From NCBI GenBank assembly GCA_958295645.1, contig OY282361.1, positions 1,640,501 through 1,704,500 of the forward strand: a DNA stretch of 64,000 nt, read 5' to 3'. Below the pieces are notes generated by a model, which worked only from the letters and a program-made list of their open reading frames with translations, made no database searches and was not told the DNA's origin. The position numbers were made by a program, and so were the translations under genes. Below, piece after piece: positions 10,779 to 54,578 of the stretch; position 1 is the stretch's first letter; the number at the start of each line of letters is the position of its first letter. Source of the DNA: Longimicrobiales bacterium. GTDB taxonomy: Bacteria; Gemmatimonadota; Gemmatimonadetes; Longimicrobiales; Gaopeijiaceae.

Positions 10779-11447
10779 ATGACCCCGAAGACCAGCTTGG
10801 CGGATCGCGAGACGGAAGCCGCGGCCGAGGGTGGCACCGGTCTCGAGCCGGCTCGCCGCTGCTTCGTTTGCGGTCCGGACAACCGAATCGGGCTCCATTT
10901 GAGCTTCCGCATTCGCGGCGAGACGTGCGTGTCCGAGTTCACGCCGGGTCCCGACCACGTGGGCTATCCGGGCGTCGTGCACGGCGGCATGATCTACAGC
11001 GCGTTGGACGACGTGATGGCCAACTGGCTCTATCTCCAGGGCGCCCGCGCCTACACGGCCCGCTGCGAGATCCGCTACCGCCGGCCCGCCGCCGTGGGAG
11101 AGACGCTGCGGCTGGTCGGGCGGCCGACCGGACGCAAGCGCAGGTTGGTGACGATGGAGGGCGCTGCGACATGCGCGTCGGACGGGCGAGTCGTGGCGAT
11201 GGCGACCGCCACCTTCGTGATCCTGAACGACGCCGAGTTTCCCGACACCTCGGCGACCGAGCCGGAACGGAACTCGGGCCGGAGCAGCGATCCCCTTCGC
11301 GCGACTCAGTCCTGCGCCACGTCCGCCGACCAAGTCACCTTCACCGCCCCCTTGAGACTGCGGGCGGTCGGACACTTGTCGGCATGGGTCGCCAACGCAC
11401 GGTCGATCTTCTCACGGGGCGCCCCCGCCGGGGGTCGAATCGCATAG
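10779..11447 (+). CDS. PaaI/hotdog-fold acyl-CoA thioesterase
   Basis: A 222-aa protein whose residues about 25-160 form a hotdog thioesterase of the PaaI/YigI type, hydrolysing acyl-CoA thioesters. An N-terminal RRCFVCGPDNRIGLHL motif is typical of the subgroup. HGGMIYSALDDVMANW contains the active-site helix, and RYRRPAAVGETLRLVG is the following strand. The start (ATG 10779) lies 36 bases after the cyclophilin stop. The last 60 or so residues have no recognisable fold and run 142 bases antisense to the 3' end of the OsmC gene, so the real stop may simply be late by chance. Confidence 0.85.
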   Translation: MTPKTSLADRETEAAAEGGTGLEPARRCFVCGPDNRIGLHLSFRIRGETCVSEFTPGPDHVGYPGVVHGGMIYSALDDVMANWLYLQGARAYTARCEIRYRRPAAVGETLRLVGRPTGRKRRLVTMEGAATCASDGRVVAMATATFVILNDAEFPDTSATEPERNSGRSSDPLRATQSCATSADQVTFTAPLRLRAVGHLSAWVANARSIFSRGAPAGGRIA

Positions 11448-11770
11448 TGAACGTGGATGCCGGTCAGCACGACGACCCGGTCCACCACCTCGTTGACGCC
11501 CTCGGCTCGCGCGCTCAGCGCCTCCGCGGCCATCGGAATCCCGCGCACCTCCAGTGCGCCGGCGAGCGTGCCGACGAGTCAGGTGGCCGCGGCAGCGACC
11601 AGATAGTCGACGGGCAGGGGTAGATCGGGCTCCGAATCAAGCCCGTAGTGCGCCTTGATCGGGCCGTGGACGCCGAAGTCGACCACGACGCCGTCGTGCA
11701 GCGTCGCGCGGCGACGCACGCCTTCGGCCCTGGCGATCTGCACGCGGGACGTGTAGAAGGGCTTCGTCAC
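11306..11770 (-). CDS. OsmC-family protein, candidate selenoprotein (in-frame TGA as Sec64)
   Basis: OsmC/Ohr-type proteins are thiol-dependent hydroperoxide reductases with two conserved cysteines. Here the frame runs from GTG 11770 to 11306 (154 codons) with one in-frame TGA at 11579-11581. The two halves share the same frame and both match the family: LPLPVDYLVAAAAT before the TGA, then LVGTLAGALEVRGIP and HYAIRPP. The TGA sits exactly where the first redox cysteine is expected (AAxxC), while the second remains (HADKCPTARSL, Cys133). A hairpin of bacterial SECIS type follows at the right distance. The start is firm: AAAGGAGG lies 7-8 bases upstream and the GTG overlaps the preceding stop (GTGA). 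OsmC-like selenoproteins are known from marine metagenomes. Alternative: a nonsense mutation or sequencing error from TGC. Sec machinery is not in this window. Confidence 0.75.
11540..11562 (-). promoter_or_regulatory. SECIS-like hairpin just downstream of the OsmC TGA
   Basis: On the coding strand, 16 bases after the TGA, the sequence CCGGCGCAC-UGGAG-GUGCGCGGG folds into a stem: six perfect pairs GCGCAC/GUGCGC, a G.G mismatch, then two more C-G pairs. The apical loop UGGAG starts 25 nt after the UGA and has G at its second and third positions. Bacterial SECIS elements bound by SelB usually have a loop 16-37 nt from the UGA with a G in the first two loop positions, so it fits. I folded it by hand only; in GC-rich DNA a chance hairpin is possible. 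Confidence 0.6.
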
Positions 11771-12117
11771 TCTGCTTCCTCCTTTGGGACGGGGAGATGG
11801 AACAGCTCGGGGTTCGCTCGCTCGATGAACACGTTCATGACGCCGCCGCACACCGCCGGGCTCCAAGAGGTGAAGTCGTCGGTCAGATCGACGTGGACGA
11901 TGGACGGAGGAGCGCCGTCGAACAGCTTGCGGGCCGCCAAGAGGACCTCGCCCTCGCCGCAACCGCCGCCGATGGTGCCGGCGATCACGCCGCTCCCGCC
12001 CACGAGCATGGCGGCCCCGGTCTTGCGAGGCGTGGAGCCCCGCGTCGAGACGACGGTCGCGAGCACGGCAGGCTCCGAGAGCGCGACCAGCCGCTTCAGG
12101 AGGTGGTCGTCGTTCAC
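11767..12117 (-). CDS. stand-alone XdhC/CoxI N-terminal domain protein
   Basis: A 116-aa protein matching only the N-terminal domain of XdhC/CoxI, chaperones that handle and insert molybdenum cofactor into xanthine or CO dehydrogenases. Motifs are LATVVSTRGSTPRKTGAAMLV, GTIGGGCGEGEVL and WSPAVCGGVMNVFIE. It starts at GTG 12117, 53 bases after the larger XdhC gene, and its stop overlaps the OsmC start. Splitting the XdhC N-domain from its Rossmann domain is seen in some molybdenum-hydroxylase clusters. No molybdoenzyme gene is in the window, so its client is unknown. Confidence 0.88.
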   Translation of the reverse strand: MNDDHLLKRLVALSEPAVLATVVSTRGSTPRKTGAAMLVGGSGVIAGTIGGGCGEGEVLLAARKLFDGAPPSIVHVDLTDDFTSWSPAVCGGVMNVFIERANPELFHLPVPKEEAE

Positions 12118-12169: not shown

Positions 12170-13195
12170 TCACGACGCGCCGGCCCCGCGGTCGTCCTCG
12201 GCGGCCGCCGTCGCAGGCGAACCGCCGACGGGTTCGGACGAGCCGAAGTACCGATCCACCACGCGCTCCTTGTCGGGCAGAGGCGTTCCCGTGCCTCCGT
12301 GGCGGCACATTACGATCTCGCCAGCCACCGAGATCGCGATCTCCTCGGGCGTCTGGCCGCCCAAGTCCAGCCCCACGGGGGCCCTCACGCGCCGCAGGTC
12401 GGCGGCCTCGAAGCCGTCGCGGACGAGCTGTTCGTGCGTGGCCCGGACGCGGCGGCGGCTCCCGATCATGCCGATGTAGGCCGGGGGCGACGGCATTCGC
12501 AGAAGACGGATCAGGCATTCGTAGTCGAAGCGGTGGCCCCGGGTCACAAGGACGACGTGGTCGGCGGGGGCCAGCGGCGTGTCGGCGAACGGGGCTCGGA
12601 AGTCGATGACGCGCACCGCCGACGCCTCCGGGAAGCGCTGCGGGGACGCGAACTCCGGCCGGTCGTCCAGCACTTCGACCTGCAGGCCCAGCATGGCGCC
12701 GCAGCGGCTCAACGGGACGGCGACGTGGCCCGCGCCCACGATCACCATGCGAGCGGAAGGGCCGTGCGCCTCCATGTACACGGTCGCGGTGGCCGTCGAG
12801 GGGCCGGCGGCGAACTGGACGGTCCGCGCGGCCGCCCCTGAAGCCACGCGGCTAGGAAAGACCTCCGGCAGGATTCGGCCCACGGCGTCGTCCAAGGCGG
12901 GATGGCCGAGGGTCCCGTGCGTTCGGCCTTCGCAACGCCAGAGGCGCAGGCCCACCAGCGACTCGTCGCCGCATTCGGCAACGACGGCGGTGCAGATGCG
13001 GCGTCCCCCGGCCACCGCCGCCAAGACGGCGGCCGCCATGTCGACCGCCGACGGGCGGTCGCGACCTGCGACGGAGGCGGACGGATCGTCTCTTGGCCCG
13101 CTCAAGGCGTCGGCGACCCGTTCGCGGGATCGCGCCTCCGCCCAACGGCAGGCGTCCGCTTGGTCGCGGGCGAGCCGTCGGCTACGTCGGCGCAT
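12170..13195 (-). CDS. XdhC/CoxF family protein (Rossmann C-domain with divergent N-domain)
   Basis: A 341-aa molybdenum-enzyme maturation factor. The C-terminal half is a clear XdhC Rossmann domain (MVIVGAGHVAVPLSRCGAML, VLDDRPEFA, HRFDYECLIRLL, YIGMIGSRRRV, LDLGGQTPEEIAISVAGEIV). The N-terminal 150 residues only faintly resemble the XdhC N-domain and lack its GSTPR motif. That domain is supplied by the small gene downstream. ATG 13195 overlaps the MocA gene by 94 bases; ATG 13039 is an alternative without overlap. It lies between mocA-like and coxI-like genes in one operon. Confidence 0.87.
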   Translation of the reverse strand: MRRRSRRLARDQADACRWAEARSRERVADALSGPRDDPSASVAGRDRPSAVDMAAAVLAAVAGGRRICTAVVAECGDESLVGLRLWRCEGRTHGTLGHPALDDAVGRILPEVFPSRVASGAAARTVQFAAGPSTATATVYMEAHGPSARMVIVGAGHVAVPLSRCGAMLGLQVEVLDDRPEFASPQRFPEASAVRVIDFRAPFADTPLAPADHVVLVTRGHRFDYECLIRLLRMPSPPAYIGMIGSRRRVRATHEQLVRDGFEAADLRRVRAPVGLDLGGQTPEEIAISVAGEIVMCRHGGTGTPLPDKERVVDRYFGSSEPVGGSPATAAAEDDRGAGAS

Positions 13196-13881
13196 GTCCT
13201 GGTTCCGCTCGGCGCCTGGCCGAAGCGACGCCGGTACCGGTTCGGCGTGTCCAGGTCGTCCAGGACGGAGGAGTCCGTCACATCCACTTCCAGCACGCGG
13301 CCCGGGTCCCTCCGCACCACCGTGCGCGCTCCTTCGGCCAGCCCGTCTTCGAAGAACTCGCCGACGACGCTCATGTCGGCCAGCACGGGATGGCCGCGCT
13401 GGTTCTCGAAGCGAGGCACGACGAGCAAGGCCCTGGTGCGCCGCCAGGCCTCGACGAGGGCCGCGACCGTGGCCGGGGCGATCATAGGGTTGTCCACCGG
13501 CGTGAACGCCACCGCACCCAGGTCCGGGAGCCTCCCCCGCAGATCGGCCAACCCGGCGCGGAGCGAACCGACTTGTCCCCCCGCCCCGCCTCGATTCACC
13601 ACGATCCGGCCCGAAGCCGCCTTCACCTGCCGCTCCAGCTCTCCCCCCGCCTCGCGCGCCACGACGGCGACCGGCGCGCAGCCGCCTTCGGCCAGCGCCC
13701 CCGCCAAGCGCGCCGCGAACGACTTGCCGCCGGCGTCGAGCATCGCCTTGGCGGCGCCCATCCGAGCCGACCCTCCCGCCGCCAGCACCAATCCGGCGAC
13801 TCGAGCCCGGAGCCCGGAGCCCGTCGAAACCGGCGGAGCGTCGCGCGACGGGCGCACACCGCCTCCCAGCGGACCCATCAT
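13102..13881 (-). CDS. MocA/MobA-like nucleotidyltransferase (molybdenum cofactor cytidylyltransferase type)
   Basis: A 259-aa NTP transferase of the MocA/MobA family, which attaches CMP or GMP to molybdopterin. The nucleotide-binding N-terminus reads VAGLVLAAGGSARMGAAKAML. The metal-binding region is FTPVDNPMIAPATV, and NQRGHPVLADMSVV is the substrate loop. Its start ATG overlaps the stop of the upstream FadJ-like gene (ATGA at 13878-13881). The linkage with two XdhC-type genes supports a role in molybdopterin-cytosine-dinucleotide enzymes. The last 35 residues look unconserved and overlap XdhC. Confidence 0.88.
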   Translation of the reverse strand: MMGPLGGGVRPSRDAPPVSTGSGLRARVAGLVLAAGGSARMGAAKAMLDAGGKSFAARLAGALAEGGCAPVAVVAREAGGELERQVKAASGRIVVNRGGAGGQVGSLRAGLADLRGRLPDLGAVAFTPVDNPMIAPATVAALVEAWRRTRALLVVPRFENQRGHPVLADMSVVGEFFEDGLAEGARTVVRRDPGRVLEVDVTDSSVLDDLDTPNRYRRRFGQAPSGTRTCADVADGSPATKRTPAVGRRRDPANGSPTP

Positions 13882-16052
13882 CGCCCCGCGAAGACGCCGT
13901 GAAACGTCTCGCCCGACTCGCCCAGCCGGCGCAACACCGGGCTCGGCGCGTAGCGGTCGCCCAGCCGCTCGTGGAGAGCCGCCGAAGCCGAGAGCACGGC
14001 GGCCAAGCCCCGGTCGTCCGCATACTTGAGCAAGCCCCCGCGAAACGGCGGGAAGCCCGTGCCCATCACCATGCCCAGGTCCACGTCCGCCGCCGAGGCC
14101 ACGATCTCCTCGTCCAGCACGCGCGCGGCCTCGTTGATCATCGCGAGGACGAGCCTGTCCTGCACCTGCTTCGGCTTCGGCGCGGCCCGGGACCTCCGCA
14201 GGCCCGCGTCCTCGTACACCGAGAGGTCGAACTTGCGCTGCTTTCCGTCCCGGTAGAGGTAGAAGCCGCGGCCGCCCTTTCGTCCGAGCCGGTTCGTCCG
14301 GCCCAACGCGACGAGAGCCGGGGCCGGCGCCATTCGGTCGCCCAGCGCGGTCGCCATCGCCTCGCCTGCGTGCCGCACGACGTCGATGCCCACCTCGTCG
14401 ATCAAGCGGAAGGGTCCCATGGGGGCGCCGAAGGCTCTCCAGGCGGCGTCCACCGCGCGGGCGTCCCATCCCTCGTCCAGTAGATGGCCTGCTTCGTTCA
14501 GGTAGGGGGCCAAGATGCGGTTCACGAGGAAGCCGGGCCCGTCCGCGGCAACGACGGGCGTCTTGCCCAGGCGAACGGCCAGCGCGGCGATGGTCTCCAA
14601 CGTGGCCTCGGAGGTCCGCGCGCCCCTGACGACCTCCACGAGGGGCATGCGGTGGACGGGGTTGAAGAAGTGCATTCCGGCGAATCGCTCCGGGTGATCC
14701 AGCGCCGCGGCCATCTCGTCCACCGAAAGGGACGACGTGTTGGTGGCGAGGACGGCCCGCGGACCCACGACCTCCTCCAGTTCGCCGAACACCGCCCGCT
14801 TCACGTCCATGCGCTCCACCACGGCCTCGATCACCACGTCGGCCCGCCCGACGCCCGCGTAGTCCAGGCCGCCGGACACGAGGCCCATCTTGCGCTCCGC
14901 CTCCCGGCGACGAAGGCGCCGCCGGCTCACCGCCTCGTTGAAGAGCGAGCGCGACGCCGCCAAGCCCGTCGCCACGGCTTCGTGGGCCACGTCCTTGAGG
15001 CGCACGGGAATGTCTCGGTACGCCAGCGACTGCGCGACGGCGCCCCCCATGACGCCCGCTCCGATCACGGCCGCCCGCTCGACCGGAGCCGCGACGCCGC
15101 CCTCGCTCCACGGCCCCTTGCGTGCCCGCTCCCGCATCCGGAACAGCAGAATCAGGTTCTTGCAGACCCGCGACGTGGCCAGCTCGCCGACCGCCCGCGC
15201 CTCCATCTCGAAGCGCTTCTGCATCGAGCGTCCCGCGCCCCGCCGCAAGACCTCGACGATCTTGAGCGGCGCGGGGTAGCGGCCGCCCGTGCGCCGGGCC
15301 ACCTGCCTTCGCGCCATGGCAAGGACGAGGGCGCGTCCCAACGGCGTCCCGTCCAGCAAGCGCGCGCCCAGTCCGCGGCGGCGGCGGGATCTGGCGCCCG
15401 CCGTGCGCGCTCCGCCGCCGCGCGAGTCCTCGCCTGCCATCAAGTCCCGCACGAAGGCGAGCGCCCTGTCCTCGAACTGCGCCGCCGGAAGCACGCGGTC
15501 CACCAAGCCGGTTCGCCCGGCCTTCGAGGCGCTCGCCGGCTTGCCGGACAGCATCAGCTCCAGCGCCGCCCGCAGGCCCACTAGGCCCGGCAGGCGGGTC
15601 GTGCCTCCCCAGCCCGGCAGGATGCCCAGCGACACTTCGGGGAAGCCGATGCGGGTGGCCTCGTCGTCCGAAGCGACCCGAAAGTCGCAGGCCAGCGCCA
15701 ACTCCGCGCCGCCCCCGAGGCAGAGGCCGCGAACCGCGGCCACGACGGGCACCGGCAGAGCCCCTAGGCGGGCAAACAGCGCTTGGCCCCGGCGGGAGGC
15801 CTGCTCGCCGGCCTGCGCATCGGCGATGGAGGCGATCGCGTCCACGTCGGCCCCCGCGATGAACGACCGGGGCTTCGCCGACAGAATCGCCAGAGCGCGC
15901 AAGCGGCCGCTGGCCGCCTCGGAGGCCGCCAAGCCGACCGCCTCGTCCAAGCCACGGAACGTGTCCGCGTCGAGGATGTTGTGCGCCCGGACGGGGTCGT
16001 CGAATACGAGCCGTCCCAGGCCGTCCGCGCCGACGCGCAACCGTGGGTTCAC
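13878..16052 (-). CDS. fadJ: fused enoyl-CoA hydratase / 3-hydroxyacyl-CoA dehydrogenase (FadB/FadJ type)
   Basis: A 724-aa bifunctional beta-oxidation enzyme. The N-terminal crotonase domain (1-190) has the oxyanion-hole segments FIAGADVDA and LCLGGGAELALACDFR and the catalytic Glu in GFPEVSLGILPGWGGT. A linker with KNLILLFRMRERARKG precedes the dehydrogenase domain (about 330-510): AAVIGAGVMGGAVAQSLAYR for NAD binding, LATNTSSLSVDE, and the catalytic His in MHFFNPVHRMPLVEVV. C-terminal dimer domains follow (GFLVNRILAPYLNEA). It starts at GTG 16052 and heads the operon with MocA/XdhC/OsmC. No thiolase neighbour is visible. The symbol denotes family only. Confidence 0.92.
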   Translation of the reverse strand: MNPRLRVGADGLGRLVFDDPVRAHNILDADTFRGLDEAVGLAASEAASGRLRALAILSAKPRSFIAGADVDAIASIADAQAGEQASRRGQALFARLGALPVPVVAAVRGLCLGGGAELALACDFRVASDDEATRIGFPEVSLGILPGWGGTTRLPGLVGLRAALELMLSGKPASASKAGRTGLVDRVLPAAQFEDRALAFVRDLMAGEDSRGGGARTAGARSRRRRGLGARLLDGTPLGRALVLAMARRQVARRTGGRYPAPLKIVEVLRRGAGRSMQKRFEMEARAVGELATSRVCKNLILLFRMRERARKGPWSEGGVAAPVERAAVIGAGVMGGAVAQSLAYRDIPVRLKDVAHEAVATGLAASRSLFNEAVSRRRLRRREAERKMGLVSGGLDYAGVGRADVVIEAVVERMDVKRAVFGELEEVVGPRAVLATNTSSLSVDEMAAALDHPERFAGMHFFNPVHRMPLVEVVRGARTSEATLETIAALAVRLGKTPVVAADGPGFLVNRILAPYLNEAGHLLDEGWDARAVDAAWRAFGAPMGPFRLIDEVGIDVVRHAGEAMATALGDRMAPAPALVALGRTNRLGRKGGRGFYLYRDGKQRKFDLSVYEDAGLRRSRAAPKPKQVQDRLVLAMINEAARVLDEEIVASAADVDLGMVMGTGFPPFRGGLLKYADDRGLAAVLSASAALHERLGDRYAPSPVLRRLGESGETFHGVFAGR

Positions 16053-53703: not shown

Positions 53704-54162
53704 ATGTCCTTCTTCAGCAAGATTCTCGGCGGCTCCGACAAGGCCGAGCGCGTCGACTACTACGAAGAAGGCGTGGCGCTGGCGGGCGAAGGGAAGTTCG
53801 ACGAGGCGCTCACGTCGTTTCGGCTGGCGCTCAAGGAGTCCCCGGGCGATCCCATCGTGCTGCAGCAGATCGCCATCGCCTACACGCGGACGGGCCGGGA
53901 GCAGGAGGCCGTCAAGACCTACCGCCACGTCCTCGCGCGGAACCCGAATTCGCCGGGCGCCCACTACGGGCTGGCCTTCCTGCTGCTGCGGGGCGGCGAG
54001 CAAGCCGAAGCCGTGGAGCACTTGAAGGCGTTCCTGGAGCAAAGTCCGCCGGGTCCGGAAGCCCGCGACCACATCGGGCACGCGCGCGCCACGTTGCGCG
54101 AAATCCAGGAACGGCGCGAGCAGGGCGCCGGGCAAGCCCAGGAGGCGGCGCCGCAAGCATGA
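53704..54162 (+). CDS. tetratricopeptide-repeat protein
   Basis: A 152-aa protein made of about three TPR units (YYEEGVALAGEGKFDEALTS, IAYTRTGREQEAVKTYRHVL, HYGLAFLLLRGGEQAEAVEH), which form a helical protein-binding surface. No signal peptide is seen. Its stop overlaps the ATG of the next gene (ATGA), opening an operon that runs through OsmC, acyl-CoA ligase, CutA and TerB-like genes. The 235 bases before it hold no other gene. Confidence 0.88.
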   Translation: MSFFSKILGGSDKAERVDYYEEGVALAGEGKFDEALTSFRLALKESPGDPIVLQQIAIAYTRTGREQEAVKTYRHVLARNPNSPGAHYGLAFLLLRGGEQAEAVEHLKAFLEQSPPGPEARDHIGHARATLREIQERREQGAGQAQEAAPQA

Positions 54163-54578
54163 AGGCCGACAAGGAGGTTGGGCTCCGCTGGACCGGCGGG
54201 CTGGCTTTCGAGGGCGGGCCGGTGGACGGGCCGCGGATCGCGGTGGACGGCGATTCGCGGACGGGGCCTTCGCCGATGGACTTGGTGCTCGTGGCCGTGG
54301 CCGCCTGCATGGCCATCGACGTGAAGCTGATTCTGGAGAAGATGCGCGTGCCGCCGGAGACGCTGGACGTGACGGCCCAGGGCGAGCGCGTGGACGACCA
54401 GCCGCGGCGCTATTCGGGCGTGCGAATGGTCTTTCGGGTCGGGGGACTGGCGGCGACGGACCGGGGCAAGGCCGAGAAGGCCATCGCGCTGTCCAAGGAG
54501 AAGTACTGCTCGGTGCTGTTCTCGCTGAGGCCCGACTTGCGCCTGGAGACGGCGCTGGAGATCGACTCCGGTGTCTGA
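54159..54578 (+). CDS. OsmC-family protein with normal cysteines
   Basis: A 139-aa OsmC/Ohr-like peroxidase-type protein. The first redox Cys is in VLVAVAACMAIDVKLIL and the second in SKEKYCSVLFSLRP. It is encoded with ordinary TGC codons, unlike the relative at 11306-11770, and belongs to a different OsmC branch (YhfA-like). GGAGG lies upstream in the TPR gene. Role: likely detoxification of organic hydroperoxides; the substrate is unknown. Confidence 0.9.
   Translation: MKADKEVGLRWTGGLAFEGGPVDGPRIAVDGDSRTGPSPMDLVLVAVAACMAIDVKLILEKMRVPPETLDVTAQGERVDDQPRRYSGVRMVFRVGGLAATDRGKAEKAIALSKEKYCSVLFSLRPDLRLETALEIDSGV

What the first reader, a model, noticed from the sequence alone, without database searches (positions are those of the whole stretch)
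11306..11770. OsmC-family gene with TGA at the redox cysteine: candidate selenoprotein
Seen: both halves share one frame; only one stop (TGA, 11579-11581) interrupts; it falls at the position of the first conserved OsmC cysteine, the second cysteine is kept, the start has an excellent AAAGGAGG site and the gene is embedded in an operon by a 4-base overlap. A hairpin with loop 25 nt after the UGA and G at loop position 2 fits bacterial SECIS rules. Known: OsmC-like selenoproteins have been described from marine metagenomes. Inference: Sec is inserted here. The organism also encodes a cysteine-type OsmC (54159-54578).
Basis: partly seen in the sequence, partly recalled or inferred. Interest (0 to 1): 0.86.

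Follow-up and report, generated by a model that had tools for sequence, protein, structure and literature searches.

The report
OsmC-family selenoprotein of soil bacteria
All genomic evidence says this gene reads an internal stop codon as the rare amino acid selenocysteine, giving a probable OsmC-type peroxide-detoxifying enzyme, and the same selenium-dependent gene recurs in three bacterial phyla without any sulfur (cysteine) version turning up.

Summary
The finding holds. At 11306-11770 (-) one OsmC-family gene is interrupted only by TGA at 11579-11581, in the column of the first (peroxidatic) OsmC cysteine; the second cysteine is kept. The genome (2.9 Mb, one contig, Gemmatimonadota by its relatives) carries tRNA-Sec, SelB, SelA, SelD and a second OsmC-UGA paralogue. 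All 44 relatives fetched, and every match covering that codon at E<1e-9 in 792 genomes of three phyla (134 carry one), have TGA there. In Gemmatimonadota 88 of 90 such genomes have SelB. The hairpin fits the bacterial SECIS model: loop 25 nt after UGA, invariant U-G-G, compensatory stem changes, all six pairs intact in 68 of 74 distinct sequences against 6% expected from synonymous codon choice. OsmC-like selenoproteins are already published, so the kind is known. This group scores far below NCBI's model for them (27.9 against a cut-off of 95 bits), has motif UxxGT rather than the published UxxT, and shows no Cys counterpart in the genomes searched. The operon link to xdhC is local to this genome. 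Sec insertion and peroxidase function are inferred, not measured.

The parts
11306..11770 (-). OsmC-family selenoprotein gene, 154 aa with TGA read as Sec; GTG start, TGA stop at 11306-11308
   Evidence: Pfam PF02566 E 7e-14; 44 relatives; AlphaFold model pLDDT 94 and Foldseek hits to OsmC/Ohr
11579..11581 (-). in-frame TGA (Sec64) in the column of the peroxidatic Cys
   Evidence: TGA in 45 of 45 sequences; aligned to Cys of 1ukk and of the window's Cys-type OsmC
11543..11559 (-). bacterial SECIS hairpin: 5' arm 11559-11554 GCGCAC, loop 11553-11549 UGGAG, 3' arm 11548-11543 GUGCGC
   Evidence: fits the model quoted from PMC13188914
11372..11374 (-). codon of Cys133, the second (resolving) cysteine
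   Evidence: invariant in A1 and A2
11778..11785 (-). Shine-Dalgarno sequence AAAGGAGG, 7 nt before the GTG
   Evidence: sequence
11767..12117 (-). XdhC/CoxI N-terminal-domain ORF, overlaps the OsmC start by 4 bases (GTGA)
   Evidence: not a conserved neighbour
12170..13099 (-). XdhC Rossmann-domain ORF (start codon not settled)
13102..13899 (-). MobA-like nucleotidyltransferase ORF (start codon not settled)
54159..54578 (+). Cys-type OsmC/YhfA-like protein of the same genome, distant relative (26% identical)

Best explanation
The gene encodes an OsmC-fold selenoprotein. SelB with Sec-tRNA(Sec) binds the hairpin 25 nt after the UGA and inserts selenocysteine at residue 64. Sec64 then acts as the peroxidatic residue of an organic-hydroperoxide reductase: it attacks the peroxide, becomes a selenenic acid, and is resolved by Cys133 as a selenenyl-sulfide that a cellular dithiol reduces. 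Shown here: gene structure, conservation of the UGA and of the hairpin, the complete Sec machinery, the OsmC fold (predicted) and both active-site columns. Inferred: actual Sec insertion (about 0.97 likely), peroxidase activity (about 0.7) and the reductant. The confidence given is for the selenoprotein claim together with an OsmC-type thiol/selenol redox role.
For: tRNA-Sec 79.5 bits with anticodon TCA; SelB wing domain in a long ORF; SelA E 5e-118; SelD E 7e-111 with its own in-frame TGA in GAGUACKLGQ. TGA in 45/45 close sequences, and in every match covering the codon at E<1e-9 in 792 genomes of three phyla. SelB in 88 of 90 Gemmatimonadota genomes with the gene against 130 of 208 without it, odds ratio 26. 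Codon entropy in the hairpin about 0.1 bit on average against 1.23 bits at 35 other conserved positions; GCA used at Ala+8 in 44/45 but in only 65 of 741 Ala codons elsewhere in the genes. 68 of 74 distinct sequences keep all six pairs, synonymous null 6% (maximum 13.5%); double changes A-U to G-C and C-G to U-A. OsmC fold.
Against: No expression or Se-labelling data. Two genomes with the gene lack a SelB match (G159, G283); G283 has tRNA-Sec, while G159 and the genome of L053 have no tRNA-Sec above the cut-off; these are draft genomes. A few group-2 relatives (L110, L111, L113, L118) have a disrupted stem. Peroxidase activity and reductant rest on homology to OsmC/Ohr.
Confidence: 0.85

Rival explanations
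1. Sec is inserted, but the protein is not a general peroxidase: it has another Se-thiol redox role, for example a stand-alone reductase or a factor serving the xdhC/mobA molybdenum-enzyme operon beside it.
For: In this window the gene overlaps an xdhC-type ORF by 4 bases and lies next to a mobA-like ORF; the genome has two molybdenum hydroxylases elsewhere.
Against: None of 44 relatives has xdhC, mobA or fadJ within the flanks held (self-control positive); in the relatives whose neighbours were listed the neighbours differ between lineages.
Confidence: 0.2
2. Pseudogene or sequencing error: TGA is a real stop or a miscalled TGC/TGT.
For: A lone in-frame stop is what a decayed gene or an error would show.
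Against: The same codon is TGA in well over a hundred genomes with an otherwise open frame; protein identity of 54-77% in the Gemmatimonadota relatives continues past the TGA.
Confidence: 0.01
3. TGA is reassigned genome-wide, or read by plain readthrough as Trp or another residue, without Sec.
For: Readthrough needs no SECIS.
Against: TGA ends this gene and the upstream ORF; the full Sec machinery is present; the hairpin is conserved beyond protein constraint and covaries; the column is Cys in homologues.
Confidence: 0.02

Closest known systems
OsmC-like selenoprotein (Sargasso Sea / GOS; PF02566, motif UxxT; NCBIfam NF041052 OsmC_like_Se)
   Same: OsmC domain, Sec as predicted redox residue, bacterial SECIS downstream of the UGA (PMC1088965, PMC2398784, PMC13188914).
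   Different: Scores 27.9 bits against the NF041052 cut-off of 95; best E among 30 relatives 7e-10, among 25 group-2 relatives 1.5e-6. Motif U-x-x-G-T, T at +4, not the published UxxT. No Cys homologue of this subgroup found in 792 genomes, whereas the GOS table lists 161 for the published family. The sequences behind the published family could not be read here, so overlap is not excluded.
OsmC / Ohr peroxiredoxins (1ukk, 1nye, 6ebg)
   Same: Fold (Foldseek probability 1.00, TM-score about 0.7-0.8) and both cysteine columns.
   Different: First Cys replaced by Sec; only about 10-22% identity.
YhfA-type Cys OsmC at 54159-54578 in the same genome
   Same: Same fold family, Cys in both columns.
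   Different: 26% identical, Cys form; too distant to be a Cys counterpart.
Second OsmC-UGA paralogue of this genome (G000:C1:2756180-2756623, L090)
   Same: TGA in the same column, SECIS of the same geometry (GCGUGC UGGAG GCACGC), second Cys kept.
   Different: About 40% identical; belongs to a separate branch.

Membership tests
OsmC family (PF02566) | Pfam gathering score of 27.5 bits reached | tested here: met
   52.4 bits, E 7e-14
OsmC family (PF02566) | OsmC/Ohr alpha/beta fold | tested here: met
   predicted model pLDDT 94.4; Foldseek to 6mjn, 2onf, 1nye, 1ukk, E about 1e-8
OsmC family (PF02566) | two conserved redox residues in the OsmC cysteine columns | tested here: met
   Sec64 and Cys133 align with both Cys of 1ukk
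OsmC family (PF02566) | hydroperoxide reductase activity | not testable with these tools
   needs purified protein
Bacterial selenoproteins | in-frame UGA at a Cys column, conserved in relatives | tested here: met
Bacterial selenoproteins | bSECIS: loop of 3-9 nt, stem of 4-16 bp, G in the first two loop positions, 16-37 nt from UGA | tested here: met
   6-bp stem, 5-nt loop UGGAG, G at position 2, 25 nt (model from PMC13188914); covariation
Bacterial selenoproteins | tRNA-Sec, SelA, SelB, SelD in the genome | tested here: met
Bacterial selenoproteins | Sec found in the protein | not testable with these tools
   needs mass spectrometry or 75Se
NCBIfam NF041052 OsmC_like_Se | score at or above the curated cut-off of 95 bits | tested here: not met
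   27.9 bits; best E-values of the other members of A1 and A4 (7e-10, 1.5e-6) are far from it too
Published OsmC-like selenoprotein (UxxT) | redox motif UxxT | tested here: not met
   U-x-x-G-T in 94 of 94 genes, T at +4; the published alignment could not be read, so the motif may have been written loosely

The most novel reading that the evidence does not exclude
An ancient OsmC subfamily, spread over at least three phyla (Gemmatimonadota, Acidobacteriota, and the phylum of a bin labelled Deltaproteobacteria/Myxococcota), in which Sec at the peroxidatic position is obligatory: no Cys form of the subfamily survives even where Cys-type OsmC proteins occur in the same genome. That would make it a natural case of chemistry that sulfur cannot replace.
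Probability: 0.4. Interest if true: 0.65.

Novelty: new member of a known kind. Interest (0 to 1): 0.45.

Why it matters
Standard ORF calling cuts this gene in two at the TGA (as the ORF list does), so the active site would be lost from annotation in many Gemmatimonadota, Acidobacteriota and other genomes. A small soluble selenoenzyme with an apparently Sec-only history and well-studied Cys cousins (OsmC, Ohr) is a clean model for asking why some enzymes keep selenium.

Tried and rejected
Chance or pseudogene: rejected by conservation. Operon-based function with xdhC/mobA: neighbours absent in all 44 relatives (the empty result was checked with an OsmC self-control). Rfam scan of the window found nothing at gathering threshold, so no listed RNA family covers the hairpin. 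Plasmids: no match. Other TGA-interrupted frames in the window: a composition scan gave only weak candidates besides this gene, one of them the gene's own end; none was pursued. The first translation was done on the wrong strand. A first SelD check failed for the same reason, corrected. Literature on Gemmatimonadota plus selenoproteins gave nothing relevant; the deep-Sep paper does not mention OsmC; the Haft and Tolstoy 2025 paper is not held.

Full report
What is there. On the minus strand, a GTG start at 11770 follows AAAGGAGG by 7 nt and overlaps the upstream stop by four bases. The frame runs to TGA 11308-11306 and is interrupted once, by TGA at 11581-11579. Standard ORF calling splits it into two unrelated-looking pieces. 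The read-through protein is an OsmC-domain protein (PF02566, 52.4 bits).

The residue. Profile comparison to solved structures aligns U64 and C133 with both cysteines of Thermus thermophilus OsmC, 1ukk; the window's own Cys-type OsmC at 54159-54578 has Cys in both columns too. An AlphaFold model from 38 related sequences is confident (pLDDT 94.4), and its best Foldseek matches are OsmC and Ohr proteins.

The machinery. The window lies in a single-contig genome of 2.89 Mb (G000). Its closest OsmC relatives are nearly all labelled Gemmatimonadota. The genome has tRNA-Sec (79.5 bits; anticodon TCA), a SelB, SelA and SelD. SelD has an in-frame TGA of its own, in GAGUACKLGQ, where Sec is well known in SelD proteins (general knowledge).

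Relatives. All 44 relatives returned from genome contigs (44-76% identical) carry TGA at exactly this codon; the only other stop read is one gene end in L029. With profile A1, 298 Gemmatimonadota genomes, 247 of the phylum of an Acidobacteria genome and 247 of the phylum of a bin labelled Deltaproteobacteria/Myxococcota were searched. I count 90, 22 and 22 genomes with a strong match, and every match covering the codon at E<1e-9 has exactly one TGA and no other stop. Stop-free matches are contig-edge or partial pieces, or distant OsmC proteins at E about 1e-4 to 1e-9. The profile was built with C in that column, so it does not penalise a Cys form. SelB occurs in 88 of the 90 Gemmatimonadota genomes with the gene and 130 of 208 without; of the two exceptions G283 has tRNA-Sec and G159 none above the cut-off.

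The hairpin. From the T of UGA, positions 23-28 (GCGCAC) pair with 34-39 (GUGCGC) around UGGAG; the loop starts 25 nt after the UGA. U29 and G33 can form the N1-N2 pair of the consensus quoted in PMC13188914. In 45 close sequences the six codons of the hairpin have entropies of 0-0.36 bit against a mean of 1.23 bits at 35 comparably conserved positions. In a wider set of 94 genes, 74 distinct at this stretch, the spacing is the same throughout, U29-G30-G31 are invariant, and 68 keep all six pairs; drawing synonymous codons from the same genes gives 6% on average and 13.5% at most. The pair 27-35 alternates between A-U and G-C and the pair 26-36 between C-G and U-A, at the cost of Val/Ala changes in the protein. 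Related sequences are not independent events, but at least three stem haplotypes are fully compensated.

Two groups. The genome has a second OsmC gene with TGA in the same column, at G000:C1:2756180-2756623. The tree puts it in a separate branch from the window's group. Members from the Acidobacteria-phylum search occur in both parts of the tree; transfer and old duplication cannot be told apart here.

Context. The neighbours here are XdhC N-terminal, XdhC Rossmann and MobA-like ORFs. None lies near the gene in the 44 relatives. The operon is therefore local, and function should not be read from it.

Function. Inferred from OsmC/Ohr chemistry (general knowledge): the first Cys attacks an organic hydroperoxide, the second resolves it, and a lipoyl-type dithiol reduces the disulfide. 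Sec64/Cys133 would do the same through a selenenyl-sulfide. Not tested.

Known or new. OsmC-like selenoproteins were described in 2005 and 2008 (PMC1088965, PMC2398784) and are listed in the 2026 review with motif UxxT (PMC13188914). NCBI has a model, NF041052, with a cut-off of 95 bits; this protein scores 27.9 and no relative tested comes near. All 94 genes read U-x-x-G-T. So the kind is known; the subgroup and its apparent Sec-only state seem undescribed in the papers I could search, with the caveat that the published sequences themselves were not readable here.

Noticed in passing
L090:6160-6624 (-), G000:C1:2756180-2756623: Second OsmC-family gene with in-frame TGA and its own covarying SECIS in the same genome.
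   Followed up: yes
L087 (G000:C1:2528068-2528988, -): SelD of this genome contains an in-frame TGA in GAGUACKLGQ, i.e. it is itself a predicted selenoprotein.
   Followed up: partly
11767-12117 and 12170-13099 (-): XdhC is encoded as two separate ORFs, N-terminal XdhC_CoxI domain and Rossmann domain, instead of one; the two molybdenum hydroxylases of the genome lie elsewhere.
   Followed up: partly
10779-11447 (+): A thioesterase-like (4HBT) ORF on the opposite strand stays open to 11447 and overlaps the 3' part of the OsmC gene antisense; its domain ends before the overlap.
   Followed up: no
L021 and L022: A bin labelled Deltaproteobacteria holds two equal copies of the gene, nearly identical to a Gemmatimonadota one; probably a redundant or chimeric bin.
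   Followed up: no
L110, L111, L113, L118: A few group-2 OsmC-UGA genes have lost pairs in the SECIS stem while keeping the U-G-G loop; they may use a shifted hairpin.
   Followed up: no
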